NCBI RefSeq assembly: GCF_003725695.1
Contig: NZ_RJSE01000007.1
Span: 1 to 64,000, forward strand
DNA: 64,000 nucleotides
Reading direction: 5' to 3'
Source: Nocardioides marmoriginsengisoli
GTDB taxonomy: Bacteria > Actinomycetota > Actinomycetes > Propionibacteriales > Nocardioidaceae
In this document: positions 7,569-35,574 of the stretch, piece after piece
Position numbering within the stretch: the first letter of the stretch is position 1
Layout of the letters: each line of letters begins with the position of its first letter
Made by a program: the position numbers and the translations under genes
The notes under the pieces: generated by a model
Databases searched by the model: none
What the model saw: the letters and a program-made list of their open reading frames with translations, nothing else
What the model was told of the DNA's origin: nothing

Positions 7569-7577
7569 TTGGATCCA
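7569..7577 (+). promoter_or_regulatory. TTGGATCCA operator before gabT
   Basis: TTGGATCCA is followed directly by GGATTC, giving tandem GGATYC units 7 bp apart (7571 and 7578). It lies 10 bp before the gabT ATG (7588) and just after a GATAAT box (7564-7569). It is the first member of the GGATCC-centred operator family repeated at about ten promoters up to 35.6 kb. Confidence 0.7.
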
Positions 7578-7587
7578 GGATTCTCCT

Positions 7588-8916
7588 ATGACCGATCTTC
7601 CGCAGGAACTCCGCCTGGTCACGGCCATCCCCGGCCCCAAGTCCCAGGCCCTCGCCGCCCGCAAGGCCGCTGCCGTCGCCGACGGCGTCGGCACCACCCT
7701 GTCCGTCTACGCCGCCGCTGCCGGTGGCGGGGTCGTGGTCGACGTCGACGGCAACTCGCTGATCGACCTCGGCTCGGGCATCGCGGTCACGACCGTCGGT
7801 AACAGCGCGCCGCGGGTCGTCGACGCGGTCACCGCCCAGGTCGCCGCGTTCACGCACACCTGCTTCATGGTCACCCCGTACGACGGCTACGTCGAGGTCG
7901 CCGAGGCGCTCAACCGGCTGACGCCGGGCGACCACGAGAAGCGCACCGCGCTCTTCAACTCCGGTGCCGAGGCCGTCGAGAACGCCGTCAAGATCGCCCG
8001 CGCGCACACCAAGCGCCAGGCGGTCGTCGCGTTCGACCACGCCTACCACGGCCGCACCAACCTGACGATGGCGCTGACCGCGAAGTCGATGCCGTACAAG
8101 TCCGGCTTCGGTCCGTTCGCGCCCGAGACCTACCGGGTCCCCGCCTCGTACCCGTACCGGGACGGTGGCGTCAGCGGTCCGGAGGCCGCCCGCACCGCGA
8201 TCGACCTGATCGAGAAGCAGGTCGGCGCCGGCAACCTCGCCGCCGTGATCATCGAACCGATCCAGGGCGAGGGCGGCTTCGTCGAGCCCGCGCCCGGCTT
8301 CCTGCCTGCGCTGGTCGCGTGGTGCCGGGAGAACGGCGTGGTCTTCATCGCGGACGAGGTGCAGACCGGCTTCGCCCGGACCGGCGACCTGTTCGCCTGC
8401 GACCACGAGGGCATCGTCCCCGACCTGATCGTCACCGCGAAGGGCATCGCCGGCGGCCTGCCGCTCTCGGCGGTCACCGGCACCGCCGAGATCATGAACG
8501 CCGCGCACGTCGGCGGCCTCGGCGGCACCTACGGCGGCAACCCGCTCGCCTGCGCCGCGGCCCTGGCTGCGATCGAGACCATCGAGGCCGACGGCCTGGT
8601 CGCCCGCGCGCGCGAGATCGGCGAGCTGGCCCTCGGCCGTCTCCGGAAGGCGCAGGAGTCCGACCCGCGCATCGGTGACGTCCGCGGCCGCGGCGGGATG
8701 GTGGCCGTGGAGCTGGTGAAGGACGCCGCCGGCACCCCCGACCCCGAGCTGACCAAGCAGGTCGCCGCGGCGGCGCACCTGCGCGGCGTGATCGTGCTGA
8801 CCTGCGGCACCTACGGCAACGTGCTCCGGCTGCTGCCGCCGCTCTCGATCAGCGACGAGCTGCTCACCACCGGCCTCGAGGTCCTCGAGTCCGTACTCGC
8901 GGAGACCCGGGCATGA
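7588..8916 (+). CDS. gabT: 4-aminobutyrate / omega-amino acid aminotransferase (GabT type)
   Basis: A 442-aa class III PLP aminotransferase. It shows NSGAEAVENAVKIAR (124-138), FIADEVQTG with the PLP aspartate (Asp256) and the PLP lysine in TAKGIAGG (Lys285). The family turns 4-aminobutyrate, or 5-aminovalerate in close relatives, into the semialdehyde using 2-oxoglutarate. The ATG at 7588 is 8 bp after AGGA. It is the first gene of an operon with gdh, gabD and whiB and overlaps gdh by ATGA. The nearby glutarate genes favour 5-aminovalerate as at least one substrate, which is an inference. Confidence 0.88.
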   Translation: MTDLPQELRLVTAIPGPKSQALAARKAAAVADGVGTTLSVYAAAAGGGVVVDVDGNSLIDLGSGIAVTTVGNSAPRVVDAVTAQVAAFTHTCFMVTPYDGYVEVAEALNRLTPGDHEKRTALFNSGAEAVENAVKIARAHTKRQAVVAFDHAYHGRTNLTMALTAKSMPYKSGFGPFAPETYRVPASYPYRDGGVSGPEAARTAIDLIEKQVGAGNLAAVIIEPIQGEGGFVEPAPGFLPALVAWCRENGVVFIADEVQTGFARTGDLFACDHEGIVPDLIVTAKGIAGGLPLSAVTGTAEIMNAAHVGGLGGTYGGNPLACAAALAAIETIEADGLVARAREIGELALGRLRKAQESDPRIGDVRGRGGMVAVELVKDAAGTPDPELTKQVAAAAHLRGVIVLTCGTYGNVLRLLPPLSISDELLTTGLEVLESVLAETRA

Positions 8917-10184
8917 CCGCGACGGCCGACCTGCTCCAGGTCCCCGCGGGCCCGCTCCACGACGCCCGCACCCAGCTGCGCGACGCGACCGACCTGCTCG
9001 GCTACGAGGAGGGCGTCTTCAAGATGCTCGCGACTCCTCGCCGGGAAGTCACCGTCAGCATCCCGCTGCGACGCGACGACGGCACCATCGACCTCTTCAC
9101 CGGTCACCGGGTGCAGCACAACTTCTCCCGCGGTCCGGCCAAGGGCGGTCTCCGCTACAGCCCGGACGTGGACCTGGACGAGGTCCGCGCGCTGGCGATG
9201 TGGATGACCTGGAAGTGCGCCCTGCTGGACGTTCCGTACGGCGGCGCCAAGGGTGGGGTCCGGATCGATCCGCGGAACTACTCGCAGGCCGAGCTGGAGC
9301 GGGTCACCCGCCGCTACACCAGCGAGATCAGCCCGATCATCGGTCCCGAGCGCGACATCCCGGCTCCCGACATCGGCACCGACGAGCGCACGATGGCGTG
9401 GCTGATGGACACCTACTCCGTCCAGCAGGGTTACACCGTCCTCGGCGTCACCACCGGCAAGCCGCTCAGCCTGGGCGGATCGCTCGGCCGCAGCACGGCC
9501 ACCTCCCGCGGCGTCGTGCACGTGGCCCTCGCCGCGATGGAGTCCCGCGGGATCACCCCGGCCTCGGCGACCGCCGCGGTCCAGGGCTTCGGCAAGGTCG
9601 GCCGGTACGCCGCGCGCTTCCTCGCCGAGGCCGGCACCCGGGTCACCGCGGTCTCCGACCAGTACGGCGCGATCGGCGACCCCGCCGGGCTCGACATCCC
9701 GGCCCTCGAGGACCACGTCGACGCCACCGGCAGCGTGGTCGGCTTCGCCCGCAGTGAGCCGATGGACGCCGAGGAGCTGCTGTTCCTCGAGGTCGACCTG
9801 CTGGTCCCCGCCGCGGTCGAGGGCGTCCTGCGCGCCGACAACGCGGACCGGGTCCGGGCCCGGGTGATCGTCGAGGGCGCCAACGGCCCGACGACCCCGG
9901 AGGCCGACGCGATCCTGCAGGCGGCGGACCGCCTTGTCGTCCCGGACATCCTGGCGAACGCCGGCGGCGTGATCGTCTCCTACTTCGAGTGGGTCCAGGC
10001 CAAGGAGGCGTACTGGTGGTCCGTCGACGAGGTCGAGAGCCGGCTCGCGCAGCGGATGACCTCGGCCTGGGAGCGGGTCAGCGAGCACGCCCTCAAGCTC
10101 GACGTACCGCTCCGCACGGCCGCCACCTGCCTCGCCGTCGAACGAGTCGCCCAAGCGCACCTGCAGCGCGGGCTCTACCCCTAA
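8913..10184 (+). CDS. Glu/Leu/Phe/Val dehydrogenase family protein (glutamate dehydrogenase-like)
   Basis: A 423-aa amino acid dehydrogenase. Substrate-binding GPAKGGLRY (Lys77), the catalytic lysine loop DVPYGGAKGGVR (Lys113) and PAPDIGTD are all present, followed by an NAD(P) Rossmann domain with VQGFGKVG. Length matches catabolic glutamate dehydrogenases. Start ATG overlaps the gabT stop. In this operon it would reoxidise the glutamate made by GabT to 2-oxoglutarate and ammonia, so the transaminase can keep turning over. The alternative is a branched-chain amino acid dehydrogenase. Confidence 0.88.
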   Translation: MTATADLLQVPAGPLHDARTQLRDATDLLGYEEGVFKMLATPRREVTVSIPLRRDDGTIDLFTGHRVQHNFSRGPAKGGLRYSPDVDLDEVRALAMWMTWKCALLDVPYGGAKGGVRIDPRNYSQAELERVTRRYTSEISPIIGPERDIPAPDIGTDERTMAWLMDTYSVQQGYTVLGVTTGKPLSLGGSLGRSTATSRGVVHVALAAMESRGITPASATAAVQGFGKVGRYAARFLAEAGTRVTAVSDQYGAIGDPAGLDIPALEDHVDATGSVVGFARSEPMDAEELLFLEVDLLVPAAVEGVLRADNADRVRARVIVEGANGPTTPEADAILQAADRLVVPDILANAGGVIVSYFEWVQAKEAYWWSVDEVESRLAQRMTSAWERVSEHALKLDVPLRTAATCLAVERVAQAHLQRGLYP

Positions 10185-10193
10185 GGACCATCG

Positions 10194-11672
10194 TTGAACA
10201 CCACCACCCTTGAGCACGCCGTCCCCGCCGACCTGGTGTTGCCGGCCGACCTTCCCACCGGAGTCCTGATCCACGGGGAGTTCGTCGGCACCGCGACGAC
10301 GTTCGCGGTCCACGACCCGGCATCGACGGCTCTGATCGCCGAGGTCGCCGACGGCGGTACCGGCGAGGCCGCCCGTGCGGTCGACGCTGCGGCAGCCGCC
10401 TTCCCGGCCTGGTCGCAGACGCCGCCGCGCGGGCGGTCGGAGGTGCTGCGTCGCGCGTACGAGCTGATGATCGCCGAGCGCGAGGAGCTCGCCGCGCTGA
10501 TCTGCCTGGAGAACGGGAAGTCGCTCGACGACGCCCGGGGCGAGGTCACCTACGCGGCCGAGTTCTTCCGCTGGTTCAGCGAGGAGGCGGTCCGGATCGA
10601 CGGCGACTACGGCGTCGCGCCGGCAGGGGGGACCCGCACCCTGGTCACGCAGAAGCCGGTCGGCGTCGCCGCCCTGGCGACGCCCTGGAACTTCCCGGCC
10701 GCGATGGCGACCCGGAAGATCGCACCGGCGCTGGCGGCCGGCTGCACGGTGGTGCTGAAGCCGGCGGCGGAGACCCCGCTCACCGCCCTGGTGATCGGCG
10801 ACATCCTCACCCGGGCCGGCGCCCCCGCGGGCGTGGTGAACATCGTGGCCACCACCGACCCGGCCGGGGTCGTCTCCACCTGGCTGACCGACGAGCGGGT
10901 CACCAAGCTCTCCTTCACCGGCTCCACCGCGGTCGGGCGCACCCTGCTGCGCCAGACCGCCGACCGGGTCCTCAACACGACCATGGAGCTCGGCGGCAAC
11001 GCGCCGTTCATCGTGACCGGCGACGCCGACGTGGCCGCCGCGGTCCGCGGTGCGATGCTCGCCAAGTTCCGCAACGGCGGCCAGGCCTGTACGGCGGCCA
11101 ACCGGCTCTACATCCACGACGCGGTCGCCGACGAGTTCACCGCCCGCTTCGGTGCCGCCGTCGAGGCGCTGCGGGTCGGTCCCGGCTACGCCCCCGACAC
11201 CCAGGTCGGCCCGCTGGTCTCCGAGCGCGCCGTCGCCGGGGTGGGTCGCCTGGTCGACGAGGCCGTCGCCGACGGTGCCACGATCGCGCACCGGGCGCAC
11301 GTCCCCGAGCACGGCTGGTACTACCCGCCGACGGTGCTCACCGGTGTCCGCCCGGACGCGGCACTGGTCTCCGAGGAGATCTTCGGTCCGGTCGCCCCGA
11401 TCATCACCTGGCGGGACCGGGACGAGCTGATCGAGCAGGCCAACAGCACCGAGCTCGGGCTGGCGTCGTACGTCTTCTCCCGCGACGTCCGGGACGCGCT
11501 CCAGATCGCCGAGCGCCTCGACACCGGCATGGTCGGCATCAACCGGGGCATCGTCTCCGACCCGGCCGCTCCGTTCGGCGGCACCAAGCAGAGCGGTCTC
11601 GGCCGCGAAGGCGCCAGCGAAGGGATCAAGGCCTTCCAGGAGACGCAGTACTACAGCGTCGACTGGGCGTGA
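10194..11672 (+). CDS. gabD: Succinate/glutarate-semialdehyde dehydrogenase (GabD type)
   Basis: A 492-aa NAD(P)-dependent aldehyde dehydrogenase with the general-base Glu265 in LELGGNAPF and nucleophile Cys299 in NGGQACTAANR. Both segments are typical of succinate-semialdehyde dehydrogenases, many of which also oxidise glutarate semialdehyde. The start is a TTG at 10194, 6 bp after AAGGA. The stop overlaps the next gene's GTG. It completes the GabT reaction, giving succinate or glutarate; glutarate would feed the CoA-transferase and glutaryl-CoA dehydrogenase genes encoded just beyond on the other strand. Confidence 0.88.
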   Translation: MNTTTLEHAVPADLVLPADLPTGVLIHGEFVGTATTFAVHDPASTALIAEVADGGTGEAARAVDAAAAAFPAWSQTPPRGRSEVLRRAYELMIAEREELAALICLENGKSLDDARGEVTYAAEFFRWFSEEAVRIDGDYGVAPAGGTRTLVTQKPVGVAALATPWNFPAAMATRKIAPALAAGCTVVLKPAAETPLTALVIGDILTRAGAPAGVVNIVATTDPAGVVSTWLTDERVTKLSFTGSTAVGRTLLRQTADRVLNTTMELGGNAPFIVTGDADVAAAVRGAMLAKFRNGGQACTAANRLYIHDAVADEFTARFGAAVEALRVGPGYAPDTQVGPLVSERAVAGVGRLVDEAVADGATIAHRAHVPEHGWYYPPTVLTGVRPDAALVSEEIFGPVAPIITWRDRDELIEQANSTELGLASYVFSRDVRDALQIAERLDTGMVGINRGIVSDPAAPFGGTKQSGLGREGASEGIKAFQETQYYSVDWA

Positions 11673-11971: not shown

Positions 11972-11979
11972 CCGGTCAG
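11968..11979. terminator. 12-bp palindrome spanning two convergent stop codons
   Basis: CTGACCGGTCAG is a perfect palindrome that contains the whiB TGA (11969-11971) and, on the other strand, the glutaryl-CoA dehydrogenase TGA (11976-11978). Only 4 bp separate the two convergent reading frames. It could act as a small bidirectional hairpin, but no T run follows, so its role as a terminator is tentative. Confidence 0.4.
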
Positions 11980-13151
11980 CGGAACGCCGACTGCCCGGTC
12001 AGCTTCTCCCCCACGATCAGTGTGTGCATCTCGACGGTGCCCTCGTAGGTCAGCACCGACTCCAGGTTGTTCATGTGCCGGATCACCGGGTACTCCAGCG
12101 AAATCCCGTTCGCGCCGAGGATCGTGCGGGCGGTCCGGCAGATCTCCAGGGCGGCCCGGACGTTGTTGAGCTTGCCCAGGGAGACCTGCTCGGGACGGCT
12201 CAGGTGGGCGTCCTTCAGTCGGCCGAGGTGGGCCGCCAGCAGCACGCCCTTGGTGTACTCCAGCGTCATCTCGACGAGCTTCTGCTGGGTAAGCTGGAAC
12301 CCGTCGATCGACCGGCCGAACTGCACCCGGTCGGCGGCGTACGCGCGTGCGGCCTCGATCGAGGAACGGGCGGCGCCGAGGGCGCCCCAGACGATGCCGT
12401 AGCGGGCCTCGTTCAGGCAGCCGAGCGGGCCGCGGAGTCCGGTGACCTCGGGCAGCACCGCGTCCGCCGGAAGGCGTACCCCGTCGAGGACCAGCTCGCT
12501 GGTGACCGAGGCCCGCAGCGACAGCTTGTGCTTGATCAGCGGAGCGGAGAACCCAGGAGTGTCGGTCGGTACGACGAACCCGCGGACTCCCTCCTCGGTG
12601 CCGGCCCAGACGATGGCGACGTCGGCGACGCTGCCGTTGGTGATCCACATCTTCCGGCCGTCGAGCACCCAGTCGGCGCCGTCGCGGCGGGCCCGGGTGC
12701 GCATGCTGCCCGGGTCGGACCCGACGTCCGGCTCGGTCAGGCCGAAGCAGCCGATCAGCTCGCCAGCCGCCATCCCGGGGAGCCACTGCTGCTTCTGCTC
12801 CTCGCTGCCCCACTTCCAGATCGCCGTCATCGCCAACGATCCCTGCACCGAGACCAGCGACCGGATCCCGGAGTCGGACGCCTCGAGCTCCAGGCACGCC
12901 AGCCCGTACTCGGTCGCCGACATGCCGGCGCACCCGTAGCCGGTCAGGTGCATCCCGAGCAGCCCGAGCTTGCCGAACTCCTTGGTCAGACCGCGGACGT
13001 CGTCGAGCTGGCCGGTCTCGAACCAGGTCGCCACGTACGGGTCGACCTTGTCGGCGCAGACCTGGCGCACCGTCGCGCGGACCGCCAGCTCGTCGGCGGA
13101 GAACAGGTGGTCGAGGTTCGCGAGCTCGTCGATCCTGGAAAGCGCGTTCAC
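11976..13151 (-). CDS. gcdH: Glutaryl-CoA dehydrogenase-like acyl-CoA dehydrogenase
   Basis: A 391-aa flavin acyl-CoA dehydrogenase. LGCLNEARYGIVWGALGAA and the C-terminal YEGTVEMHTLIVGEKLTG (catalytic Glu region) are characteristic of glutaryl-CoA dehydrogenases, which oxidise and decarboxylate glutaryl-CoA to crotonyl-CoA. The GTG start at 13151 overlaps the stop of the upstream CoA-transferase (GTGA), so the pair is translationally coupled. With that CoA-transferase it forms a complete glutarate-to-crotonyl-CoA module. A general short-chain acyl-CoA dehydrogenase is the less likely alternative. Confidence 0.85.
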   Translation of the reverse strand: MNALSRIDELANLDHLFSADELAVRATVRQVCADKVDPYVATWFETGQLDDVRGLTKEFGKLGLLGMHLTGYGCAGMSATEYGLACLELEASDSGIRSLVSVQGSLAMTAIWKWGSEEQKQQWLPGMAAGELIGCFGLTEPDVGSDPGSMRTRARRDGADWVLDGRKMWITNGSVADVAIVWAGTEEGVRGFVVPTDTPGFSAPLIKHKLSLRASVTSELVLDGVRLPADAVLPEVTGLRGPLGCLNEARYGIVWGALGAARSSIEAARAYAADRVQFGRSIDGFQLTQQKLVEMTLEYTKGVLLAAHLGRLKDAHLSRPEQVSLGKLNNVRAALEICRTARTILGANGISLEYPVIRHMNNLESVLTYEGTVEMHTLIVGEKLTGQSAFR

Positions 13152-14314
13152 GGGTGCATCTCCTTGCTGTCGTCGTCCGCCAACCACTGGCGGACCTGGG
13201 TGTTGTGCTCGCCGAGGCGCGGCGGGGCGTCGTACCGGGTGATCGGGGTGGCCGAGAACCGCAACGGGCTGCGCACCTGAGGGGTGCCGCGACCGACGTC
13301 GACGGTGGGGTCGAGCCCGAGCTGCTCGGCCAGGGCGAAGGCGTCGGCCAGGTCGCCGACCCGGCCGGCCGGGACGCCGACCCGTTGGAGCCGGTCGCTC
13401 CACTCGGCGGCGTCAGCGGTGGCGAGCCGTTCCTCGAGCGCAGCGATCAGCAGCGAGCGGTGCTCGACCCGGGCGGCGTTGGTGGCGAAGCGGGGATCGG
13501 TGCCCAGGCCGGGTGCGCCGACCTCGGCGGCGAGCGCCCGGAACTGCGCGTCGTTCCCGCAGCAGATCGCGACCGGTCCGTCGGCGCACGCCAAGGTCTC
13601 GTACGGCGCGATCGACGGATGCCGGTTGCCCATCCGGGTCGGCACCGCGCCGGTGCTCAGGTGGCCCGAAGCCTGGTTGACCAGCGAGCCCAGCAGCGAG
13701 GAGAGCAGGTTCACCTCGACGCGCTGCCCGACCCCGTCGACGTCCCGGGACCGCAGCGCGGCCAGCACGCCGACGACCGCGTCCTTCGAGGTCAGCACGT
13801 CGACCAGGGCGACCCCGGCCTTGACCGGCTGGCCGTCGGCCTCCCCGGTGATGCTCATCAGTCCGCCGACCGCCTGCACCAGGAAGTCGTACCCGGCCAG
13901 TGCGGCGCCGCCGGCACTGCCGAAGCCGGTGATCGAGCAGTACACGACAGCGGGGTTGGCGGCTCGTACGGCGTCGTAGTCGAGACCGTGGCGCGCGAGC
14001 GCCCCGTCCCGGAAGTTCTCGATGACCACGTCGGCACGGGCAGCCAGCTCGGCGGCCAGCGCCCGGTCGCCGGGATCGGCGAGGTCGAGCTCGACGGAGT
14101 GCTTCGACCGGTTCGCGGACTCGAAGTAGCTCGACGAGCTCTCCGTCCACGGCGGGCCCCAGTGCCGGGTGTCGTCGCCCTGCCCGGGTCGCTCCACCTT
14201 CACCACGGTCGCGCCGAGGTCGGCGAGGGTCGCGGTCGCCAGCGGTCCGGCGAGCACGCGGCTGAAGTCGGCGACCAGGATGCCGTCCAGCGGCATCGCG
14301 ACCTCGGTGCTCAT
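13148..14314 (-). CDS. CaiB/BaiF family CoA-transferase (probable succinyl-CoA:glutarate CoA-transferase)
   Basis: A 388-aa class III CoA-transferase, with the family N-terminus LDGILVADFSRVLAGPLATATLADLGA and VVKVERPGQGDDTRHWGPP. Family members move CoA between carboxylic acids. The adjoining glutaryl-CoA dehydrogenase points to activation of glutarate with succinyl-CoA, as in human SUGCT-type enzymes. The ATG at 14314 is 9 bp after GGAG; an ATG at 14329 is possible but poorly placed. The gene follows the FAD oxidase by less than 20 bp. Confidence 0.8.
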   Translation of the reverse strand: MSTEVAMPLDGILVADFSRVLAGPLATATLADLGATVVKVERPGQGDDTRHWGPPWTESSSSYFESANRSKHSVELDLADPGDRALAAELAARADVVIENFRDGALARHGLDYDAVRAANPAVVYCSITGFGSAGGAALAGYDFLVQAVGGLMSITGEADGQPVKAGVALVDVLTSKDAVVGVLAALRSRDVDGVGQRVEVNLLSSLLGSLVNQASGHLSTGAVPTRMGNRHPSIAPYETLACADGPVAICCGNDAQFRALAAEVGAPGLGTDPRFATNAARVEHRSLLIAALEERLATADAAEWSDRLQRVGVPAGRVGDLADAFALAEQLGLDPTVDVGRGTPQVRSPLRFSATPITRYDAPPRLGEHNTQVRQWLADDDSKEMHP

Positions 14315-14331
14315 CGACCCGCTCTCCATGC

Positions 14332-15462
14332 CTAGTGGTGGCTCCCCGAACGCATCCACTCGACCGTCGTCGGCGTCCGCCAGGGGTCGTACGTCGCGGC
14401 GTCGACGACCGGGTCCGCGTGGCCGGCCATCAACCGGGCCAGGAACTCGGCGAAGGACGGGCCCATCATCGTGCCGTGCGCGTCGAAGCCGGCGAGCACC
14501 CAGAGGCCGTCCTCGACCTGCCCGGCGAACGGCTGGCCGTCGCCGCCGGTCTCGTCGGCGTACGAGGTGATCGTGGTCTGGATGCCGGCCTCGGCGAACA
14601 CCGGCGCCCGGACCATCGCCGCCTCGCCGAACTCCTCGAGCATGTCGGTCGCCGAGTAGTTCTCCGGGGACCGGCCGGAGACGATCGTGAAGCAGGCGCC
14701 GTCGGTCTCGCGCTCGACCTCGAACCCTTTGTCCAGGTCGATGGTCAGCGGCAGCGGCTGGTCGCCGAGCATCGGGGTGGTGAAGCCGGTGTGCACGGTC
14801 ATCGGGGTGATCGGCAGGTCGAGGCCGAAGGCGCGGGCGAGGGCCGGCGTGCCGAGGCCGGCCGCGATCACCACCCGGTCCGCGACCACGGGCGCCGGTG
14901 CGTCCACGAGCCAGCCGGCCGGGGTCCTGATGATGCTGTTGACCGGCTGCCCCTGGCGGAAGGTGACGCCGAGCCGTCGCGCCGCGCGCACGATGCCCTG
15001 CAGGCCGTCGGTCGGGTTCACCCGGCCGTCGCCCGGCGACCAGCTGCCGCCGATCAGGCCCTCGGTGCCGAGCCACGGCACCACCGTGGTCAGCTCGGCG
15101 GCGGGCACCAGGTGGACGTCGGGGGCACCGGCTGCGCGCTGCACCTCGGCCGCGCGGGTCAGGGCGTCCCACTTCGCCGGGTTGCCGGTCACCATCAGGT
15201 AGCCGTCCTCGTGGAACGGGCAGGCCCAGTCGAAGGTCTCCTCGAAGGTCTTCCAGAAGCGCAGGCCGCGGAGGCCGAACTCGACGGCGGCCGGCGTACT
15301 GAACTGCTGGCGCACGCCGCCGAACGACCCGGCCGTGCACCCGGAGCCGAGCTGCTTGGACTCGAGCACCACGATGCCGGTCTCGCCCTGGGCGGCCAGG
15401 TAGTAGCCGAGTGCGACGCCGGCGATCCCGCCGCCGACGATCACGGTGCCCGCGTTGCTCAT
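14332..15462 (-). CDS. FAD-dependent oxidoreductase, DAO family
   Basis: A 376-aa D-amino-acid-oxidase/sarcosine-oxidase-like flavoprotein. The FAD-binding dinucleotide fold VIVGGGIAGVALGYYLA is at the N-terminus, followed by VLESKQLGSGCTAGSFGGVRQQF, the segment that often carries the flavin environment in this family. It would oxidise a C-N bond of an amine or amino acid (inference). The ATG at 15462 follows AAGGAG. It is the first gene of a leftward operon with the CoA-transferase and gcdH, and it has an operator at 15498. Confidence 0.85.
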   Translation of the reverse strand: MSNAGTVIVGGGIAGVALGYYLAAQGETGIVVLESKQLGSGCTAGSFGGVRQQFSTPAAVEFGLRGLRFWKTFEETFDWACPFHEDGYLMVTGNPAKWDALTRAAEVQRAAGAPDVHLVPAAELTTVVPWLGTEGLIGGSWSPGDGRVNPTDGLQGIVRAARRLGVTFRQGQPVNSIIRTPAGWLVDAPAPVVADRVVIAAGLGTPALARAFGLDLPITPMTVHTGFTTPMLGDQPLPLTIDLDKGFEVERETDGACFTIVSGRSPENYSATDMLEEFGEAAMVRAPVFAEAGIQTTITSYADETGGDGQPFAGQVEDGLWVLAGFDAHGTMMGPSFAEFLARLMAGHADPVVDAATYDPWRTPTTVEWMRSGSHH

Positions 15463-15497
15463 CGTTCTCCTTGGATCAGATCGACCTGATTGGATTA

Positions 15498-15506
15498 TGG
15501 ATCCAA
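15498..15506 (-). promoter_or_regulatory. TTGGATCCA operator of the FAD oxidase-CoA transferase-gcdH operon
   Basis: Read leftward, TTGGATCCA overlaps the front of a possible -10 box CATAAT (15499-15494). A TGGACG hexamer sits 17 bp upstream of that box, so the operator fills the end of the spacer. The next gene starts at 15462. Confidence 0.65.
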
Positions 15507-16504: not shown

Positions 16505-16540
16505 TTGACAACCCTTGCGGGCAGTGTATCTTGGATCCAA
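16505..16540 (+). promoter_or_regulatory. Promoter with TTGGATCCAA operator before the ferredoxin operon
   Basis: TTGACA (16505-16510), a 16-bp spacer, then TATCTT (16527-16532) whose last two T bases are the first two of the operator TTGGATCCAA (16531-16540). A repressor bound here would cover the -10 and start region. The same site lies in the upstream region of the divergent EamA gene. Confidence 0.75.
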
Positions 16541-16583: not shown

Positions 16584-16928
<345 letters not shown>

Positions 16929-16958
16929 CAGCACCCACACGAACAAGGGAGTGACCTG

Positions 16959-18194: not shown

Positions 18195-18219
18195 CCCCGA
18201 CGCACCCGGAGAGGCCGCC

Positions 18220-19416: not shown

Positions 19417-19418
19417 GC

Positions 19419-21395: not shown

Positions 21396-21414
21396 ATTGA
21401 ATCCAGGATCCGAA
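21396..21414 (-). promoter_or_regulatory. Operator-like site before GntR paralogue 1
   Basis: Read leftward the site is TTCGGATCCTGGATTCAAT: GGATCC and GGATTC repeated with 7-bp spacing, the second unit being a one-base variant of TTGGATCCAA on the other strand. The spacing matches the gabT site. It lies 15 bp before the regulator start. Confidence 0.6.
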
Positions 21415-21479: not shown

Positions 21480-21516
21480 TTGACAGATGAGCCGACATCC
21501 TGCATTTTGGATCCAA
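21480..21516 (+). promoter_or_regulatory. Promoter with TTGGATCCAA operator before the liv-type operon
   Basis: TTGACA (21480-21485), a 17-bp spacer, a weak -10 CATTTT (21503-21508), and TTGGATCCAA (21507-21516) beginning within the -10. This is the same geometry as at the ferredoxin and fprA promoters. Confidence 0.75.
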
Positions 21517-22799: not shown

Positions 22800-22833
22800 C
22801 GCGACACCGGAAGACAGAGGGGCTCGCGCAGGT

Positions 22834-25607: not shown

Positions 25608-26337
25608 GGACGTCGATCTCGGCTACGGCGAGCTGACCGTCGTCCACGGACTCACCTTCGAGGTGAACGCGGGCGAGGTGGTCGCGCTGCTCGGACCGAA
25701 CGGTGCCGGCAAGACCACCACGATGAACGGCATCTCCGGCGTGCTGAAGCCGAAGCGCGGCCGGATCGTCCTGGACGGCAAGAACCTGGCCGGCCGGGCG
25801 GCGCACCACGTCGTCGCCGAGGGCTTCCGGCACGTCCCGGAGGGCCGCCGCGTCTTCGGCACCCTCTCGGTCAAGGAGAACCTGCGGCTCGGGGCGTACT
25901 CGCTGCGGAAGAAGCCGTCCCTGATCGCGGAGCGGGTCAAGGAGGTCTACGACCTCTTCCCGGTGCTGGGCGAGCGCCGCGAGCAGCTGGCCGGCACCCT
26001 GTCCGGCGGTGAGCAGCAGATGCTCGCGGTCGGCCGTGCGCTGGTGACCCGGCCGCGCGTTCTCGCTCTCGACGAGCCGTCGCTGGGGCTGTCGCCGCGG
26101 ATGCAGCACGAGATCCTGGGGGTGGCCTCCGACCTGGCCTCGCAGGGGACCGCCGTGCTCCTGGTCGAGCAGAACGTCCGGGAGGCGCTCCGGATCGCCG
26201 ACCGCGCCTACGTGATCGAGCTCGGCCGGGTGGTGCTCACGGGCACCGGCAAGGAACTCGCTGCCGACAAGCGCATCGAGGCGACCTACCTTGGTGGTGG
26301 GTCGGACGAGCTCGAGTCCGAGGCAGCCGAGGCGTAG
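25588..26337 (+). CDS. Branched-chain-type ABC transporter ATP-binding protein (LivF-like)
   Basis: A 249-aa ATPase with Walker A GPNGAGKT, signature LSGGEQQ and Walker B VLALDEPSLGLSP, the LivF form. It pairs with the fused LivM-LivG ATPase domain to power import. The ATG at 25588 follows AAGGAGGT, a near-perfect ribosome site located inside the preceding gene. Confidence 0.93.
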   Translation: MALLSVEDVDLGYGELTVVHGLTFEVNAGEVVALLGPNGAGKTTTMNGISGVLKPKRGRIVLDGKNLAGRAAHHVVAEGFRHVPEGRRVFGTLSVKENLRLGAYSLRKKPSLIAERVKEVYDLFPVLGERREQLAGTLSGGEQQMLAVGRALVTRPRVLALDEPSLGLSPRMQHEILGVASDLASQGTAVLLVEQNVREALRIADRAYVIELGRVVLTGTGKELAADKRIEATYLGGGSDELESEAAEA

Positions 26338-26348
26338 AAAGGTTCACC

Positions 26349-27692
26349 GTGACCATCCGAGACGTGGCGCGCTTCGCGTCCCAGCTCACCTTCGCCGACC
26401 TCCCGGAGAACACCGTGCGCCGCGCGCGCCAGGGTCTCCGGGACACGATCGGGACGGCGCTGGCCGGCTCGGCGACCCGTGCCGCCGCGACCGCCGCGGC
26501 GGCGTTCGCCGAGGACGCCGGGCCGTTCCGGACGCTCGCTCCCGGGGCGCCGGCGCAGACCGCGACCGCGGCCGGTTTCCGCAGCGCGTTGGCGGCGAGC
26601 GCCCTGGACTTCGACGACGGGCACTACCAGGGCGGCGCGATCCATCCGTCCTCGGTGATCGTGCCGACGATCCTGGTGGCGGCCTCGAACCGCCCGGCGA
26701 GCACCGAGGAGCTGCTGGTCGCCCAGGTGGCGGCGTACGAGGTGGCGGTGCGGCTGGCGCACCTGCTCTGGCCGGCGGACGAGGCGACCGACCGCTGGTA
26801 CTGCACCGGCACCGCCGCCTGCGTCGGCGCGGCGGCGGGTGCCGCCAAGGTGCGCGGTGCCGATGAGGACGGCATCCGCCGGGCGATGCAGACCGCCTGG
26901 GCGCACGCCCCGATGGCGGCGCTGCAGTGGCCGATGGTCAAGGAGGCGATCGGCTGGTCGAGCGCCACCGCCCTCAATGCCGTCGTCCTCGGCGAGGCCG
27001 GGTTCATGGCGGCGGCGGTGCCGGGGCAGTCCCCGGACGCTCCGGCGATCTTCCCGCCGACCCCGTTCGACGAGCCCCGGGCGGCCGGCGACCCGTTCGT
27101 CACCTCGCTCGGGTCGGTCTTCGAGATCGAGCGGTCCTACCTCAAGCCGTACCCCGCCTGCCGCTACACGCACACCGCGGTCGACGTGCTCACCGAGCTG
27201 CTGGCCGGTGACGTCGCCGTCGACCAGGTCGAGGCGATCACGGTCCGCACCCACCGGTGGGCGACCTTCCTGGACTACCGGCGCCCGCCGAGCCTGGAGC
27301 ACGCGCAGTACAGCTACCCGTTCGCGCTCGGCACCCTGCTCGCCAAGGGCCGGATCACGCCGGCCGAGATGACCGAGGCGGCCTTGGCCGACGAGGCCGT
27401 GCTCGGCTTCGCCGACCGGATCGAGGTGGTGCACGACCCTGCCCTCGACGCCCACCTCCCCGACCACTACGCGACCCGGCTGGAGGTGCGCCTGGTCGAC
27501 GGCACCGTGATCGACGGCGGACCCCGCCTGGACGCGCGCGGCGACGTCACCCGCCCGCTGACCGACGACGAGCTCCGGGCGAAGTTCCTGCTCTGCGCCG
27601 AGCCGGTGCTGGGCGGCTCCGCCGCGGCGCTGGCCGACGAGCTCGACCGGGACGGGGGTACGGCGGCGCTCTGGGCGCTGATCGCCGGCTGA
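26349..27692 (+). CDS. MmgE/PrpD family protein
   Basis: A 447-aa protein of the MmgE/PrpD fold (VARFASQLTFADLPE..., ALDFDDGHYQGGAIHPSSVIVPT). Characterised members include 2-methylcitrate dehydratase, cis-aconitate decarboxylase and iminodisuccinate epimerase, so the family does not fix the reaction. The GTG at 26349 follows AAAGG, 11 bp after livF. As last gene of the importer operon it may act on the imported compound early in its breakdown. No citrate-synthase or isocitrate-lyase-like partner is nearby, which argues against the methylcitrate cycle. Confidence 0.85.
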   Translation: MTIRDVARFASQLTFADLPENTVRRARQGLRDTIGTALAGSATRAAATAAAAFAEDAGPFRTLAPGAPAQTATAAGFRSALAASALDFDDGHYQGGAIHPSSVIVPTILVAASNRPASTEELLVAQVAAYEVAVRLAHLLWPADEATDRWYCTGTAACVGAAAGAAKVRGADEDGIRRAMQTAWAHAPMAALQWPMVKEAIGWSSATALNAVVLGEAGFMAAAVPGQSPDAPAIFPPTPFDEPRAAGDPFVTSLGSVFEIERSYLKPYPACRYTHTAVDVLTELLAGDVAVDQVEAITVRTHRWATFLDYRRPPSLEHAQYSYPFALGTLLAKGRITPAEMTEAALADEAVLGFADRIEVVHDPALDAHLPDHYATRLEVRLVDGTVIDGGPRLDARGDVTRPLTDDELRAKFLLCAEPVLGGSAAALADELDRDGGTAALWALIAG

Positions 27693-27738: not shown

Positions 27739-27774
27739 TTGACGCGGATCCTGAATCCTGTACATTGGATCCAA
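27739..27774 (+). promoter_or_regulatory. Promoter with TTGGATCCAA operator before fprA
   Basis: TTGACG (27739-27744), a 16-bp spacer that itself contains GGATCC and GAATCC, then TACATT (27761-27766) merging with TTGGATCCAA (27765-27774). The geometry matches the ferredoxin promoter exactly. Confidence 0.78.
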
Positions 27775-29222: not shown

Positions 29223-29232
29223 TTGGATCCAA
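29223..29232 (+). promoter_or_regulatory. TTGGATCCAA operator before the polar amino acid ABC operon
   Basis: A perfect TTGGATCCAA lies 56 bp before the binding-protein start. CATCTT (29219-29224) merges with it as at other sites, but no good -35 box is present at the matching distance; TATGAT (29235-29240) just downstream is an alternative -10. Confidence 0.68.
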
Positions 29233-31864: not shown

Positions 31865-32596
31865 TCAGCGCGCCCGCGGCCGGTACTTCAGGCGGGAGTG
31901 CCAGGGCTTCGCCTTCAGGTGGGCGTCGACGTCGAACTTGTCGCGCAGCAGCTGGAGCAGGTTGGCCAGCTCGCCGTCGCGGTGCTTGTTCTGCAGGTCG
32001 ATGACCGCGGCGACGTCCTTGGCGGCGGCCGCCTCGGCGATGCCGGCGTGGTCCTTGGCCAGCTCGGCGGCGGCGCCCAGGTCGCGCAGGTAGAAGGACC
32101 GGTAGGCGTCGGCGTTCCAGGTGCCGGTGATCGAGCTGACCAGCTGCTCGTGGCCCGGGGACTTGAACAGCGCGAAGTGGAAGTCGCGGTTGGCGTAGGT
32201 GGCGGTGATCCGGTCGCCGGCGGCGAGCGCCTTGTCGATCGTGGTGACCGCGGTCCGCAGGCCGGCGATGGTCTCGTCGCTGAGCTGGGGCACGGTGATC
32301 GCGGCGGCCTCGGCCTCCAGCAGCTCACGGGTGCGGTAGAGGTCGAACAGGTCCTCCAGTGCCATCTCCGGGATGATGTAGCCGCGGTGCGGTGCGTACA
32401 CCACCTGCTGCTCGCCCTCGAGGATCCGGAGCGCGTCGCGCACCGGTGCCCGGCTGGTGCCGAGCTGCTTCGAGATGGCGTCGACGTTCATCCGTGCGCC
32501 GGCTGGGTACTCGCCTTCCAGGAGGGCGCGCCGCAGCTCGATGAGGACCGCTTCGACGGTCGTCAGGGGCTTCTGGAACGAACCGGCGTCGGTCAC
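31865..32596 (-). CDS. GntR-family regulator, FCD type (paralogue 2)
   Basis: A 243-aa GntR/FCD protein very like paralogue 1 across the whole length (VDAISKQLGTSRAPVRDAL, RILEGEQQVVYAPHRGY, YANRDFHFALFKSPGHEQLV, WNADAYRSFYL). The GTG start at 32596 is 6 bp after AGGAG. An operator copy (32616) lies 20 bp upstream, and the divergent Rieske operon carries another at 32725. The near-identical DNA-reading segments suggest the two paralogues bind the same operator but may respond to different ligands. Confidence 0.9.
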   Translation of the reverse strand: MTDAGSFQKPLTTVEAVLIELRRALLEGEYPAGARMNVDAISKQLGTSRAPVRDALRILEGEQQVVYAPHRGYIIPEMALEDLFDLYRTRELLEAEAAAITVPQLSDETIAGLRTAVTTIDKALAAGDRITATYANRDFHFALFKSPGHEQLVSSITGTWNADAYRSFYLRDLGAAAELAKDHAGIAEAAAAKDVAAVIDLQNKHRDGELANLLQLLRDKFDVDAHLKAKPWHSRLKYRPRAR

Positions 32597-32615
32597 TCGT
32601 CACTCCTCTTCATCC

Positions 32616-32624
32616 TGGATCCAA
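32616..32624 (-). promoter_or_regulatory. TTGGATCCA operator before GntR paralogue 2
   Basis: Read leftward, TTGGATCCAGGATGA: the GGATCC core is followed by GGAT at 7-bp spacing, as before gabT and paralogue 1. It lies directly upstream of the ribosome site of the regulator, which suggests autoregulation. Confidence 0.65.
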
Positions 32625-32697: not shown

Positions 32698-32734
32698 TTG
32701 ACACTTTCGATTGGTTATTGCATCGTGGATCCAA
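32698..32734 (+). promoter_or_regulatory. Promoter with GTGGATCCAA operator before the Rieske operon
   Basis: TTGACA (32698-32703) is followed after 17 bp by CATCGT (32721-32726), which merges with GTGGATCCAA (32725-32734). A further GGATTC lies at 32739. The first operator base pair differs from the consensus, the rest matches. Confidence 0.7.
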
Positions 32735-32755
32735 TACTGGATTCTGGAGGAACGA

Positions 32756-33817
32756 ATGACGCAGCCCGACCCTGAGGCAATCGAGCGGTACCGCATCGCG
32801 ATGGAGCGCTTCTGGCACCCGGTGATCCGATCGGTGGATCTGCTCGACCAGCCGGTGAAGGTCGTGCTCCTCGACCAGAACGTGACCGTCGTCCGCCTCG
32901 GCGACGAGGTCGCCGCGTTCCCGGACGTGTGCCGGCACCTCGGCGCGGCGCTCTCCCTCGGCGACGTCGTCCAGGGCGGTCAGGCACTGCGCTGCCGCTA
33001 CCACGGCTGGTCCTACGACAAGTCCGGCCAGTGCGTGGACATCCCGCTGCGGGCCAGCGAGAAGATCCCGGCGCAGGCGCGGGTCCAGCGCTACCAGACC
33101 CAGGAGCGCTACGGGCTGGTCTGGGTGTGCCTCTCGGAGGAGCCGGCCGCCGACCTGCCGCCGTACCCGGAGTTCGACGACGAGGACTACTACAAGAACG
33201 AGCTCCTGGTGCACGAGGAGTGGGCGGCCAGCGCACCGCGCCTGGTGATGGCCGCGCTCGACGACACGCACTTCTCGTGGGTGCACCCGGGCACCCTCGG
33301 CGTCGCCGGCCAGCCGACGATGCCCGAGCGCGTCGGCGACATCCCGGTCAGGGTCGACGGGGCCGAGCTGCACTCGCGCTACAGGACGGTGCTCCCGGCC
33401 GGCCCGCTCGCCGGGATCATGGCCGACGAGACCGAGGGCGACCAGGCGGTCGCGACCGAGGTCGAGGTCGCCGCGGTGGAGTTCGTGAACACCGCCACCG
33501 TGAACTCGATGAAGAACGTGCTGATCTCCGAGCACGGCACCTCGGTCACCTGGAACGTCTACCTGCCGATCTCCTACAACCGCACGCTGACCTTCACCCA
33601 GCTCTCCCGGACCTACGACAAGGACCCGCGGTTCGACGCCGAGATCGAGGCGTTCAACCTCGGCGTGAAGAACGAGGACAAGGCCATCGTCGAGAGCCAG
33701 CAGCCGTGGCTGCTGCCGCCGCTCAAGGCGCAGATGATCCTTTACGTCCGCCCGGAGGACGTCCCGCTGATCGAGTTCCAGAAGATGGCCGAGCGCTTCG
33801 GCGTTCCGCAGATCTGA
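32756..33817 (+). CDS. Rieske non-heme iron oxygenase, VanA/demethylase-like
   Basis: A 353-aa oxygenase. Rieske ligands are Cys59/His61 (VCRHLGAALSLGD) and Cys80/His83 (LRCRYHGWSYD); the mononuclear iron site is in ALDDTHFSWVHPG (Asp169 or 170, His172, His177). The length and the layout resemble vanillate, dicamba and caffeine demethylases, which oxidise O-methyl, N-methyl or ring carbons. It needs an electron supply that is not in its own operon; the FdxA-type ferredoxin and FprA reductase with the same operator are the best candidates. The ATG at 32756 follows GGAGG. Confidence 0.9.
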   Translation: MTQPDPEAIERYRIAMERFWHPVIRSVDLLDQPVKVVLLDQNVTVVRLGDEVAAFPDVCRHLGAALSLGDVVQGGQALRCRYHGWSYDKSGQCVDIPLRASEKIPAQARVQRYQTQERYGLVWVCLSEEPAADLPPYPEFDDEDYYKNELLVHEEWAASAPRLVMAALDDTHFSWVHPGTLGVAGQPTMPERVGDIPVRVDGAELHSRYRTVLPAGPLAGIMADETEGDQAVATEVEVAAVEFVNTATVNSMKNVLISEHGTSVTWNVYLPISYNRTLTFTQLSRTYDKDPRFDAEIEAFNLGVKNEDKAIVESQQPWLLPPLKAQMILYVRPEDVPLIEFQKMAERFGVPQI

Positions 33818-33824
33818 GGGCGGC

Positions 33825-34868
33825 ATGTCGATCCACGGAATCCGGACCCGGCCCGAGCTCTCGGCCCGGGCCCAGCTGACTTCCATCCTGCAGGCGGGTG
33901 CGCGGATCTACATGCACATCGCCGACGCCACCCTGGAGACCGGCGTGCCGACCGCGGAGGCCGCCGTACGGGCGCACCTGCGCGGGTACGGCTCCTGGCG
34001 CGGCGAGGAGATGCGTCAGGCGCACGCGGCGCTGGGCGGCGACATCGACATGCAGACGCTGATGCAGCGGTGGGACAGCGCGAGCACCTACGTGGTGAAG
34101 GACGAGCTGGAGGCCGACGGCGTCTACTCCCCCGGCGACGTCCAGTTCGAAGTGCACTACTGCCCGGCCTCGCTGGCCTGGAAGGAAGCCGGCTTCCACC
34201 GGTGGGGGCACGTGTACTGCGACGAGGTGCACCAGTCGATCGCGTCCAGCTACCACCCCGACGGCGTGGTCGTGATCCCGCTGAACCTGATGAAGGGCGA
34301 CAGCCACTGCCAGTTCCGCTGGGTGCTGCCGCCGACGGCCGCGAAGGTCGACCAGCCGGTGACCGACCTCGGCCGGCAGCTGGCCGAGCTCTACCCGGCG
34401 GCGGACACCGACGAGGAGACCGGGATGCGGCTGGCGCAGACCCGGACCAGTCGGCTGATCGCCGGAAGGTTCCTCACCTGGGCGCGGGCTGCCGAGGAGC
34501 ACGGGGTGCCGGAGAGCGCCCTGGTCGAAGGCCTCCGCCGGTGGGCGACCCAGCGCGGCGAGCTGCTCGCGAAGGACCTGGTCGGCCGCTCGGCGGCGAG
34601 CTTCCTGACCAACCTCGACCTGGCCCCGCTGGCGGTGTGGCGGTACGGCGTCGCGGTCGAGAACGACGACTGCACCGCGCTGATCGTGCACGGGACGCCG
34701 ATGGACGACCTGTTCCGGCACTACGACGCGGGCAAGTACGCGGCGATGTTCTGGGACGCCTTCCCGATCCTGGTGAAGGCGTTCGACCCGACCCTGGAGT
34801 GCCGCGTCACGGTCACCGAGACCGCGACCCCCGCACTACGGGAAGTGGTCCTCCGCCGCGCCTCCTGA
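33825..34868 (+). CDS. L-2-amino-thiazoline-4-carboxylate hydrolase-like protein
   Basis: A 347-aa protein without export signal. The stretch YCPASLAWKEAGFHRWGHVYC...DEVHQS and later LMKGDSHCQFRWVLPP resemble the ATC hydrolase family, in which conserved Cys, Asp and Cys residues lie in C-x(n)-D and GD-x-C-x-F patterns. The named enzyme opens a thiazoline ring during cysteine formation in Pseudomonas, but most relatives are untested. It starts 8 bp after the Rieske gene, so it probably acts on the oxygenase product or substrate. Its end overlaps the converging GntR gene by 56 bp. Confidence 0.65.
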   Translation: MSIHGIRTRPELSARAQLTSILQAGARIYMHIADATLETGVPTAEAAVRAHLRGYGSWRGEEMRQAHAALGGDIDMQTLMQRWDSASTYVVKDELEADGVYSPGDVQFEVHYCPASLAWKEAGFHRWGHVYCDEVHQSIASSYHPDGVVVIPLNLMKGDSHCQFRWVLPPTAAKVDQPVTDLGRQLAELYPAADTDEETGMRLAQTRTSRLIAGRFLTWARAAEEHGVPESALVEGLRRWATQRGELLAKDLVGRSAASFLTNLDLAPLAVWRYGVAVENDDCTALIVHGTPMDDLFRHYDAGKYAAMFWDAFPILVKAFDPTLECRVTVTETATPALREVVLRRAS

Positions 34869-35511
34869 TCGCCATCATCACCAGCGCCAGCTCCTTGGCC
34901 CGGTGCCGGTCCTGGAGCCGGACGACCTCGTCGGCGTCGCCGGCCGAGGCGGCCTCGAGGATCGCGTCGTGGTCGGCGGTGACCCGGAGCGCAGCGGTCA
35001 GGTCCGCGAAGTACAGCGACCGGTAGCCGTCGGTGTTCCACGACCGGACGATCGCGTCGAGCAGGTGGTACTTGCCCGATGCCTCGAACAGCGCGAAGTG
35101 AAACCGGCGGTTCGCGTGCGCGGCGGTGATCCGGTCGCCCGCGACCAGGGCCTCACGGTTCTCCCGGGCGGCGGCCCGCATCACGTCGAGGTCCGAGGCG
35201 CGCAGCACCGGCACCGCGCTGCGCGCCGCCTCGGCCTCGAGCAGGGTGCGGATCCGGTCGAGCTCGTAGAGCTCCGAGGTGGTCATGCCGGGGATCACGA
35301 ACCCGCGCCGCGCCACGTGCCCGACCTGGCCCTCGCCCTCGAGCTGGTTGAGCGCCTCCCGCAGCGGGCCGCGGCTCACCCCGAAGCGGCGCGACAGCTC
35401 CTCGATGTTCACCTGGGTGCCGTTCTCCAGGTCCCCCGCCAGCAGCGCGTCCCGCAGCGCAGCGAGCACGGCCTCGGTTCTGGTGGGGACCGGTTCGAGC
35501 CTGCGCACCAT
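34813..35511 (-). CDS. GntR-family regulator, FCD type (paralogue 3)
   Basis: A 232-aa GntR/FCD protein, more distant from the other two: VNIEELSRRFGVSRGPLREAL as helix-turn-helix, then LNQLEGEGQVGHVARRGFVI and an FCD domain with AHANRRFHFALFEASGKYHLL. The ATG at 35511 is 6 bp after AAGGA. It has its own operator copy at 35565. Being last in the order amidase then regulator (both leftward), it may also be transcribed from the amidase side. Confidence 0.88.
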   Translation of the reverse strand: MVRRLEPVPTRTEAVLAALRDALLAGDLENGTQVNIEELSRRFGVSRGPLREALNQLEGEGQVGHVARRGFVIPGMTTSELYELDRIRTLLEAEAARSAVPVLRASDLDVMRAAARENREALVAGDRITAAHANRRFHFALFEASGKYHLLDAIVRSWNTDGYRSLYFADLTAALRVTADHDAILEAASAGDADEVVRLQDRHRAKELALVMMAIRRRGGGPLPVVRGSRSR

Positions 35512-35564
35512 GGCGGATCCTTCGGCGGGTAGGTGGGTGCGACCAGTCTCCCGGAAAGTGGCTA

Positions 35565-35574
35565 TTGGATCCAA
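35565..35574 (-). promoter_or_regulatory. TTGGATCCAA operator before GntR paralogue 3
   Basis: A perfect TTGGATCCAA lies between the amidase stop (35603) and the regulator start (35511), both genes reading leftward. It is the last copy of this operator seen in the window; no clear -35/-10 pair was found around it. Confidence 0.65.

What the first reader, a model, noticed from the sequence alone, without database searches (positions are those of the whole stretch)
7569..35574. A TTGGATCCAA operator repeated at about ten promoters defines a dispersed catabolic regulon
Near-identical GGATCC-centred palindromes occur before gabT (7569), the FAD oxidase operon (15498), the EamA/ferredoxin pair (16531), GntR paralogue 1 (21396), the liv-type operon (21507), fprA (27765), the polar amino acid ABC operon (29223), GntR paralogue 2 (32616), the Rieske operon (32725) and GntR paralogue 3 (35565). 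All are in intergenic promoter regions, and all ten lie within 28 kb. Three FCD-type GntR regulators in the same stretch are the natural readers. The sites unify genes that would otherwise look like unrelated neighbours.
Basis: partly seen in the sequence, partly recalled or inferred. Interest (0 to 1): 0.85.

Follow-up and report, generated by a model that had tools for sequence, protein, structure and literature searches.

The report
Shared GntR switch over catabolic genes
Ten near-identical DNA switches sit in front of neighbouring break-down genes of one bacterium and are most likely the binding sites of three sister repressor proteins encoded among them, a local control circuit whose relatives in other bacteria sit beside genes for breaking down the five-carbon acid glutarate.

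Summary
TTGGATCCAA occurs exactly 5 times in the 4.46 Mb genome, all within 19 kb of this window; 9 of the genome's 17 places with at most one mismatch are among the ten reported sites. All ten are intergenic, though only 4.4% of the stretch is. One (21397) has two mismatches.

The three FCD-GntR proteins are paralogues. A Micromonospora cluster with one such regulator carries the operator before its main operon and between regulator and MmgE gene. Of 36 other genomes' loci with a homologous GntR, 28 have the palindrome (at most one mismatch) upstream of a glutaryl-CoA dehydrogenase or CoA-transferase relative; it ranks first of 1024 palindromes; shuffles average 0.16. The window's 'FAD oxidase operon' contains these two genes.

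Best reading: VanR-group GntR repressors bind a 10-bp palindrome at the -10/start region of catabolic promoters and leave on binding a carboxylate, perhaps glutarate. Caulobacter's vanillate promoter has the same palindrome, so this is a new member of a known kind. Binding, effector and substrate are untested.

The parts
7569..7578 (+). operator TTGGATCCAG, 9 bp before gabT
15497..15506 (-). operator TTGGATCCAT (read on -), 34 bp before the DAO / CoA-transferase / glutaryl-CoA dehydrogenase operon
16531..16540 (+). exact operator, 43 bp before the ferredoxin gene; also between it and the divergent EamA gene
   Evidence: TTGACA 20 bp before it
21397..21406 (-). weak operator (two mismatches, CTGGATTCAA read on -), 15 bp before GntR1
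21507..21516 (+). exact operator before the liv-type transporter operon
   Evidence: TTGACA 21 bp before it
27765..27774 (+). exact operator before the ferredoxin-reductase-like (fprA) gene
   Evidence: TTGACG 20 bp before it
29223..29232 (+). exact operator, 104 bp before the polar amino acid ABC operon
   Evidence: no good -35 seen
32615..32624 (-). operator TTGGATCCAG (read on -), 18 bp before GntR2; weak by matrix score
32725..32734 (+). operator GTGGATCCAA before the Rieske operon
   Evidence: TTGACA 21 bp before it
35565..35574 (-). exact operator, 53 bp before GntR3
20656..21381 (-). GntR1, GntR + FCD domains
   Evidence: 69% to the Micromonospora regulator
31865..32596 (-). GntR2, GntR + FCD domains
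   Evidence: 63% to GntR1
34813..35511 (-). GntR3, GntR + FCD domains
   Evidence: 47% to GntR2
7588..11672 (+). gabT (7588-8916), glutamate dehydrogenase-like (8913-10184), succinate-semialdehyde dehydrogenase-like (10194-11672)
   Evidence: only gabT passes a curated cut-off
11976..15462 (-). DAO-fold FAD oxidoreductase (14332-15462), family III CoA-transferase (13148-14329), glutaryl-CoA dehydrogenase (11976-13151)
16584..20684 (+). ferredoxin, GFO/IDH/MocA oxidoreductase, amidohydrolase (isoaspartyl-dipeptidase-like), M20 amidohydrolase
21600..27692 (+). liv-type binding protein, permeases and ATPases, MmgE/PrpD protein
   Evidence: livF-like 25588-26337 not run alone against Pfam, placed by its tblastn match to L034
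27800..29092 (+). FAD/NAD(P) reductase (fprA-like)
   Evidence: Pyr_redox_2; 53% to the gene in L034
29337..31860 (+). polar amino acid type ABC transporter: binding protein, permease, ATPase
32756..34868 (+). Rieske oxygenase (NdmA/SxtT-like) and ATC_hydrolase-family protein

Best explanation
The ten palindromes are operators of a local regulon read by the FCD-GntR paralogues encoded in it. Without effector, a VanR-group GntR dimer sits on the 10-bp palindrome TTGGATCCAA at the -10/start region and blocks RNA polymerase at the transporter, oxygenase, electron-transfer, amidohydrolase, gabT and glutaryl-CoA dehydrogenase operons and, by autoregulation, at the regulator genes. A carboxylate made by the pathway binds the metal-containing FCD pocket and releases the repressor. 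The regulator branch probably controlled glutarate use first (CoA-transferase plus glutaryl-CoA dehydrogenase); here its operator also covers a Rieske-oxygenase pathway that feeds C5 units into that route. Shown: the sites, their clustering, their promoter positions, and conservation of the regulator-operator pairing in other genomes. Inferred: binding, repression, the effector (glutarate or a close C5 relative) and the substrate (an N-containing, possibly heterocyclic, compound).
For: All 5 exact copies and 9 of 17 near copies of the genome lie in these promoters; all ten intergenic; TTGACA/TTGACG 20-21 bp before four operators. Three paralogous GntR-FCD proteins, the genome's only matches to GntR2 at E <= 1e-25. 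Micromonospora L034: co-linear genes, one GntR, exact operator with the same TTGACA spacing before the main operon, one-mismatch copy between GntR and MmgE. 28 of 36 other-genome loci have the palindrome upstream of the glutaryl-CoA dehydrogenase or CoA-transferase relative beside the GntR; first of 1024 palindromes; shuffles mean 0.16, maximum 2. The window operon at 15497 encodes the same two proteins. Metal-site residues invariant. A VanR-group protein is known to bind a 10-bp palindrome overlapping -10 boxes (PMC7797058 passages).
Against: No binding data. Two self-sites are weak. 8 of 36 loci lack the site. The 29223 promoter has no good -35. The palindrome also occurs beside other GntR-like genes in sister genomes, so another of the ten FCD proteins of this genome could read it. 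GntR homologues at 29-37% identity in the order sample have no site within about 1.5 kb (0 of 15). Substrate and effector rest on domain names and neighbours only.
Confidence: 0.72

Rival explanations
1. One paralogue (GntR1 or GntR2) reads all operators; GntR3 has diverged and serves a neighbouring set, such as the amidase genes, or competes for the same sites with another effector.
For: GntR3 is 47% identical and has a different recognition-helix sequence (SRGPLREAL against SRAPVRDAL); the Micromonospora cluster manages with one regulator.
Against: An exact operator lies 53 bp before GntR3, and other-genome regulators with SRVPLREAL- or SRVPVREAL-type helices also have the operator nearby.
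Confidence: 0.2
2. The operator is real, but the effector is the primary substrate or an early intermediate, and the glutarate link is only shared ancestry of a regulator that changed its ligand.
For: GntR1, GntR2 and the Micromonospora protein form a clade apart from the glutaryl-CoA-dehydrogenase-associated regulators; the main targets here are transporters and the Rieske system.
Against: The window's glutaryl-CoA dehydrogenase operon carries the operator, while 20 of 20 family loci of that gene lack it, suggesting that it was put under this control.
Confidence: 0.4
3. The palindromes are chance, BamHI-type (GGATCC) sites, or sites of an unrelated regulator such as the LysR protein beside gabT.
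For: GGATCC alone is common: 45 in the window, 32 of them inside genes; a LysR gene lies beside gabT here and in L034.
Against: The exact 10-mer is confined to these promoters genome-wide; flanks differ beyond the core, so it is not a copied repeat; it tracks GntR neighbours in 28 of 36 other-genome loci; the scan found no site at the L034 LysR-gabT pair.
Confidence: 0.04

Closest known systems
Caulobacter crescentus VanR and its vanillate operator
   Same: [quoted passage not shown] That VanR is a GntR/FCD repressor of a Rieske-type demethylase operon is recalled.
   Different: Vanillate against an unknown substrate; one operon against about ten promoters; VanR protein not compared here.
Atu1419 of Agrobacterium fabrum (VanR group of FCD-GntR)
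   Same: 10-bp palindrome overlapping -10 boxes, autoregulation, three-His metal site (PMC7797058 passages).
   Different: Palindrome ATGTATACAT, tetramer, methylene-tetrahydrofolate as effector, hydroxycinnamate genes.
CsiR and GcdR of Pseudomonas putida
   Same: CsiR is a GntR repressor released by glutarate; gcdH-gcoT encodes the same two activities as the operon at 15497 (PMC6667623 passages).
   Different: There gcdH-gcoT is controlled by the LysR protein GcdR and CsiR does not bind its promoter; here a GntR-type operator stands before the pair.
GntR1/GntR2 of Corynebacterium glutamicum
   Same: Redundant GntR-type regulators over one catabolic regulon (PMC2230225, title and start of abstract in the listing).
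   Different: Gluconate regulon; two rather than three regulators; not compared by sequence.

Membership tests
FCD-GntR repressors, VanR group | GntR winged helix-turn-helix plus FCD domain | tested here: met
   All three proteins over Pfam cut-offs for PF00392 and PF07729
FCD-GntR repressors, VanR group | three His and Asn/Asp metal site (present in several, not all, VanR-group members) | tested here: met
   H139, H182, H204 and N135 invariant in 4 of 4 proteins; feature from PMC7797058; that these columns are the metal ligands is my reading
FCD-GntR repressors, VanR group | six-helix effector domain (VanR) rather than seven (FadR) | not tested
   No structure predicted; solved relatives of GntR1 include VanR-group entries 3c7j, 4p9f, 3fms, 3sxy, 3ihu
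FCD-GntR repressors, VanR group | sequence-specific binding of the palindrome and release by effector | not testable with these tools
   needs gel shift or footprint
GntR general operator consensus with GT and AC boxes | NyGTNxACNy | tested here: not met
   TTGGATCCAA has GG and CC; consensus from PMC4494728 passages; the other-genome form TTGGATACAA has one AC half
VanR regulon | operator sequence ATTGGATCCAAT | tested here: met
   core TTGGATCCAA identical at 5 of 10 sites
VanR regulon | regulator orthologous to VanR and vanillate as substrate | not tested
   VanR sequence not obtained; no vanB-type reductase was looked for
GntR next to glutaryl-CoA dehydrogenase and CoA-transferase (other genomes) | homologous GntR, the two genes, and TTGGATCCAA upstream of them | tested here: inconclusive
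   Genes and operator present in the window, but its GntR genes lie 5-20 kb away and fall in a separate clade
P. putida-type GcdR control of gcdH | LysR gene beside gcdH | tested here: not met
   nearest LysR gene, 6618-7517, is beside gabT

The most novel reading that the evidence does not exclude
A widespread, apparently undescribed branch of GntR repressors senses glutarate (or a close C5 acid) through a VanR-like operator; in this genome the operator was captured by a rare, probably acquired Rieske-oxygenase pathway for an N-containing compound, and the regulator was triplicated so that three repressors with one operator but different effectors integrate substrate, intermediate and end product.
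Probability: 0.25. Interest if true: 0.7.

Novelty: new member of a known kind. Interest (0 to 1): 0.5.

Why it matters
One operator ties together ten promoters whose genes would otherwise be annotated one by one. Its conservation at 28 of 36 other-genome loci predicts the cognate operator of a family of GntR regulators beside glutaryl-CoA dehydrogenase genes, for which my searches listed no paper. It gives a directly testable effector (glutarate or a C5 intermediate), a likely destination for an uncharacterised Rieske pathway, and a natural case for asking why a regulon keeps three paralogous repressors for one operator.

Tried and rejected
Rejected: chance or a GGATCC effect; a dispersed repeat (flanks differ); the idea that the operator comes with the glutaryl-CoA dehydrogenase gene of the family: 0 of 20 loci with about 5-9 kb on each side have it. 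These 20 were picked from the 29 other-genome loci and skip some ranked lower. The 30 loci themselves show no site either, but they reach only 1.5 kb and miss even the window's own site, so they are no test.

Considered and not adopted: ectoine degradation (the Micromonospora M24 protein and the window's M20 and binding proteins match ectoine models, but below their cut-offs: 148.5 of 575, 160.1 of 550 and 98.4 of 190.9 bits); nicotine or N-methylpyrrolidone routes (recalled, no test).

Led nowhere: plasmid searches for the Rieske protein (11 records, 29.5-33.8% identity) and for GntR1 (no match); the ATC_hydrolase protein has no PDB sequence match at E <= 0.1. Motif-plus-GntR paper searches listed nothing that looked relevant; of 37 papers with ATTGGATCCAAT, 20 were listed and one was opened. 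Searches for a GntR regulator of glutaryl-CoA dehydrogenase (3 papers, 1 paper, 15 of 276 papers seen) showed P. putida work and reviews, none on this family as far as titles and abstract starts tell. No structure was predicted and no fold search was made.

Limits: the matrix was built from matches to TTGGATCCAA with at most one mismatch, so it is independent of the window but not of the motif; the ranking of all 1024 palindromes is the unbiased test. Its shuffles keep base composition only. Gene calls are from a simple script.
Full report
WHAT IS THERE. The window is 71% G+C. TTGGATCCAA is present exactly at 16531, 21507, 27765, 29223 and 35565, with one mismatch at 7569, 15497, 32615 and 32725, and with two at 21397. 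The whole genome, 4,457,833 bases in 16 contigs, has no other exact copy and 17 places with at most one mismatch: 9 here, 8 elsewhere; the reversed control pattern has 12. Base composition predicts about 0.64 exact copies genome-wide. All ten sites fall outside my gene calls, which leave 4.4% of 7500-35600 intergenic. Counting up to two mismatches in the window alone is only weakly enriched (13 against 6.7). The self-sites of GntR1 and GntR2 are weak.

ANATOMY. The sites lie 9 to 104 bp before start codons. At 16531, 21507, 27765 and 32725 a TTGACA or TTGACG stands 20-21 bp before the operator; a 16-17 bp spacer then gives -10 hexamers TATCTT, CATTTT, TACATT and CATCGT whose last two bases are the first two of the operator. 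This is read by eye from the printed sequences. A protein on the operator would cover the -10 region and the start site. The 29223 promoter lacks a good -35. The sites before gabT, GntR2 and the Micromonospora GntR share a second form, TTGGATCCAGGAT, near the start codon.

REGULATORS. The three proteins have GntR and FCD domains. GntR1 and GntR2 are 63% identical, and GntR3 is 47-48% identical to them. They are the only three matches to GntR2 in this genome at E <= 1e-25, although the genome has ten FCD matches. The tree joins GntR1 with the Micromonospora protein (support 100/72), then GntR2 (99/97), then GntR3 (100/100, with a long-branch warning). Solved relatives of GntR1 (10 distinct sequences) include 3c7j, 4p9f, 3fms, 3sxy and 3ihu, which PMC7797058 names as VanR-group members (passages). 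That paper describes a metal site of three histidines and an Asn or Asp in some members; H139, H182, H204 and N135 are invariant in the four proteins aligned here. Its regulator Atu1419 binds a 10-bp palindrome, overlapping -10 boxes (passages).

SYNTENIC RELATIVE. The Rieske protein found four contigs. Micromonospora sp. HNM0581 (L034) holds ferredoxin, liv-type transporter genes, MocA oxidoreductase, Rieske, amidohydrolase, an M24 protein, M20 protein, one GntR, MmgE and the fprA-like gene, with gabT and LysR beside them. It has an exact operator at 3534 before the long operon, with TTGACA 21 bp upstream, and a one-mismatch copy at 15447 between the divergent GntR and MmgE genes. The other three contigs (48%, 48% and 26% identity) have no site with fewer than two mismatches in the scan. 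The Rieske gene is rare: in 24 genomes of the genus sample only the own genome has a full match, plus one partial match of 38% over 180 residues; 6 other genomes of a 396-genome phylum sample have relatives at 48-50%.

PAIRING ELSEWHERE. A profile of GntR1, GntR2 and the Micromonospora protein finds homologues at E <= 1e-40 in 37 of 394 genomes of the class sample, the own one included. All 36 other-genome loci were fetched. In them a glutaryl-CoA dehydrogenase relative is present in 29 of 36 and a CoA-transferase relative in 32 of 36; a copy of TTGGATCCAA with at most one mismatch lies upstream of one or both in 28 of 36. Among all 1024 ten-base palindromes it is first with 28 loci; the next, TTGTATACAA, has 15; in 100 base-composition shuffles the count for TTGGATCCAA has mean 0.16 and maximum 2, and the best of any palindrome is 10. 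Eight loci fail: L094, L096, L098 and L117 have neither gene; L095, L097, L101 and L102 have the genes but no such site; of these, L095, L101 and L102 have a two-mismatch form and L097 nothing within three mismatches. GntR homologues of the order sample at 29-37% identity have no site within about 1.5 kb (0 of 15). A matrix from the other-genome sites ranks the ten window sites first to tenth.

THE GLUTARATE LINK. The operon behind the 15497 site encodes, besides a DAO-fold oxidoreductase, a family III CoA-transferase (best solved match 4ed9, a CaiB/BaiF protein; succinate-hydroxymethylglutarate CoA-transferase entries rank third and fourth) and a glutaryl-CoA dehydrogenase (best matches named so, 581 bits to 3sf6). 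It is this genome's only match to that protein at E <= 1e-150. Of 20 family loci fetched around relatives with 73-83% identity, 15 have the CoA-transferase beside it and 10 a gabT-like gene, but 0 of 20 have the operator. So the operator seems to have been added here to an inherited gene pair; that is inference, no ancestral reconstruction was done.

MECHANISM. Best reading: repression by occupying the -10/start region, relieved by a carboxylate bound in the FCD pocket. Shown: sites, positions, clustering, conserved pairing. Inferred: binding, repression, effector. The pathway is guessed from domains: oxygenase, ferredoxin and reductase attack the substrate; amidohydrolases open or trim it; gabT, semialdehyde dehydrogenase, CoA-transferase and glutaryl-CoA dehydrogenase carry a C5 unit to central metabolism. 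The Rieske protein's nearest solved relatives are the methylxanthine demethylase NdmA and SxtT/SxtDIOX. Relatives at 48-50% lie beside an amidohydrolase and a cytosine/purine permease (L172), an amidohydrolase (L173) or a PnrA-like binding protein (L036). A nitrogen heterocycle is a fair guess, no more.

COMPARISON. [quoted passage not shown] That VanR is a GntR/FCD protein using this palindrome is otherwise recalled; its protein was not compared. The operator departs from the general GntR consensus with GT and AC boxes (PMC4494728 passages). It is not private to these regulators: 4 of 23 sister genomes have exact copies, 6 in all, and 3 of the 6 (G061, G161) lie beside other GntR-like genes, judged by reading translations, not by a Pfam search. 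In Pseudomonas putida, gcdH is controlled by LysR-type GcdR, while the GntR CsiR controls another glutarate route and is released by glutarate (PMC6667623 passages). Redundant GntR paralogues over one regulon have a precedent in Corynebacterium glutamicum (PMC2230225, listing). The searches listed no paper on a GntR beside glutaryl-CoA dehydrogenase of this kind.

VERDICT. Observation confirmed; interpretation supported, with the assignment among the three proteins open. A new member of a known kind, with two uncommon points: three paralogous regulators for one operator, and apparent capture of the glutaryl-CoA dehydrogenase operon by a rare catabolic cluster. Interest 0.5.

Noticed in passing
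L177/L180 (genome G161, contig 7) and L176 (genome G061, contig 2): Exact TTGGATCCAA sites on both sides of a GntR-like gene (G161) and 600 bp before another, with a glyoxalase-like gene between (G061): the same operator used by other GntR proteins in sister genomes.
   Followed up: partly
L172, L173, L035, L036: Rieske relatives at 48-50% lie beside an amidohydrolase and cytosine/purine permease or a PnrA-like transporter, hinting at purine- or pyrimidine-like substrates (L035 read by eye only).
   Followed up: partly
window 33825-34868 and L034 12137-13375: The window has an ATC_hydrolase-family protein after the Rieske gene, while the Micromonospora operon has an M24 (ectoine-hydrolase-like) protein instead; possibly alternative hydrolases for one step.
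   Followed up: no
window 35603-37148 (-): An AtzE-like amidase and a 59-residue ORF before it; the small ORF recalls AtzG (recalled, no Pfam match). No operator stands before them.
   Followed up: no
window 11669-11971 (+): A WhiB-family gene overlaps the end of the semialdehyde dehydrogenase gene behind gabT.
   Followed up: no
window 27746 and 35515: Extra intergenic GGATCC copies near the operators of fprA and GntR3, perhaps second half-sites.
   Followed up: no
L152-L171: In the family sample the glutaryl-CoA dehydrogenase gene lies with CoA-transferase (15 of 20) and gabT-like genes (10 of 20), suggesting an inherited 5-aminovalerate/glutarate module without this operator.
   Followed up: partly
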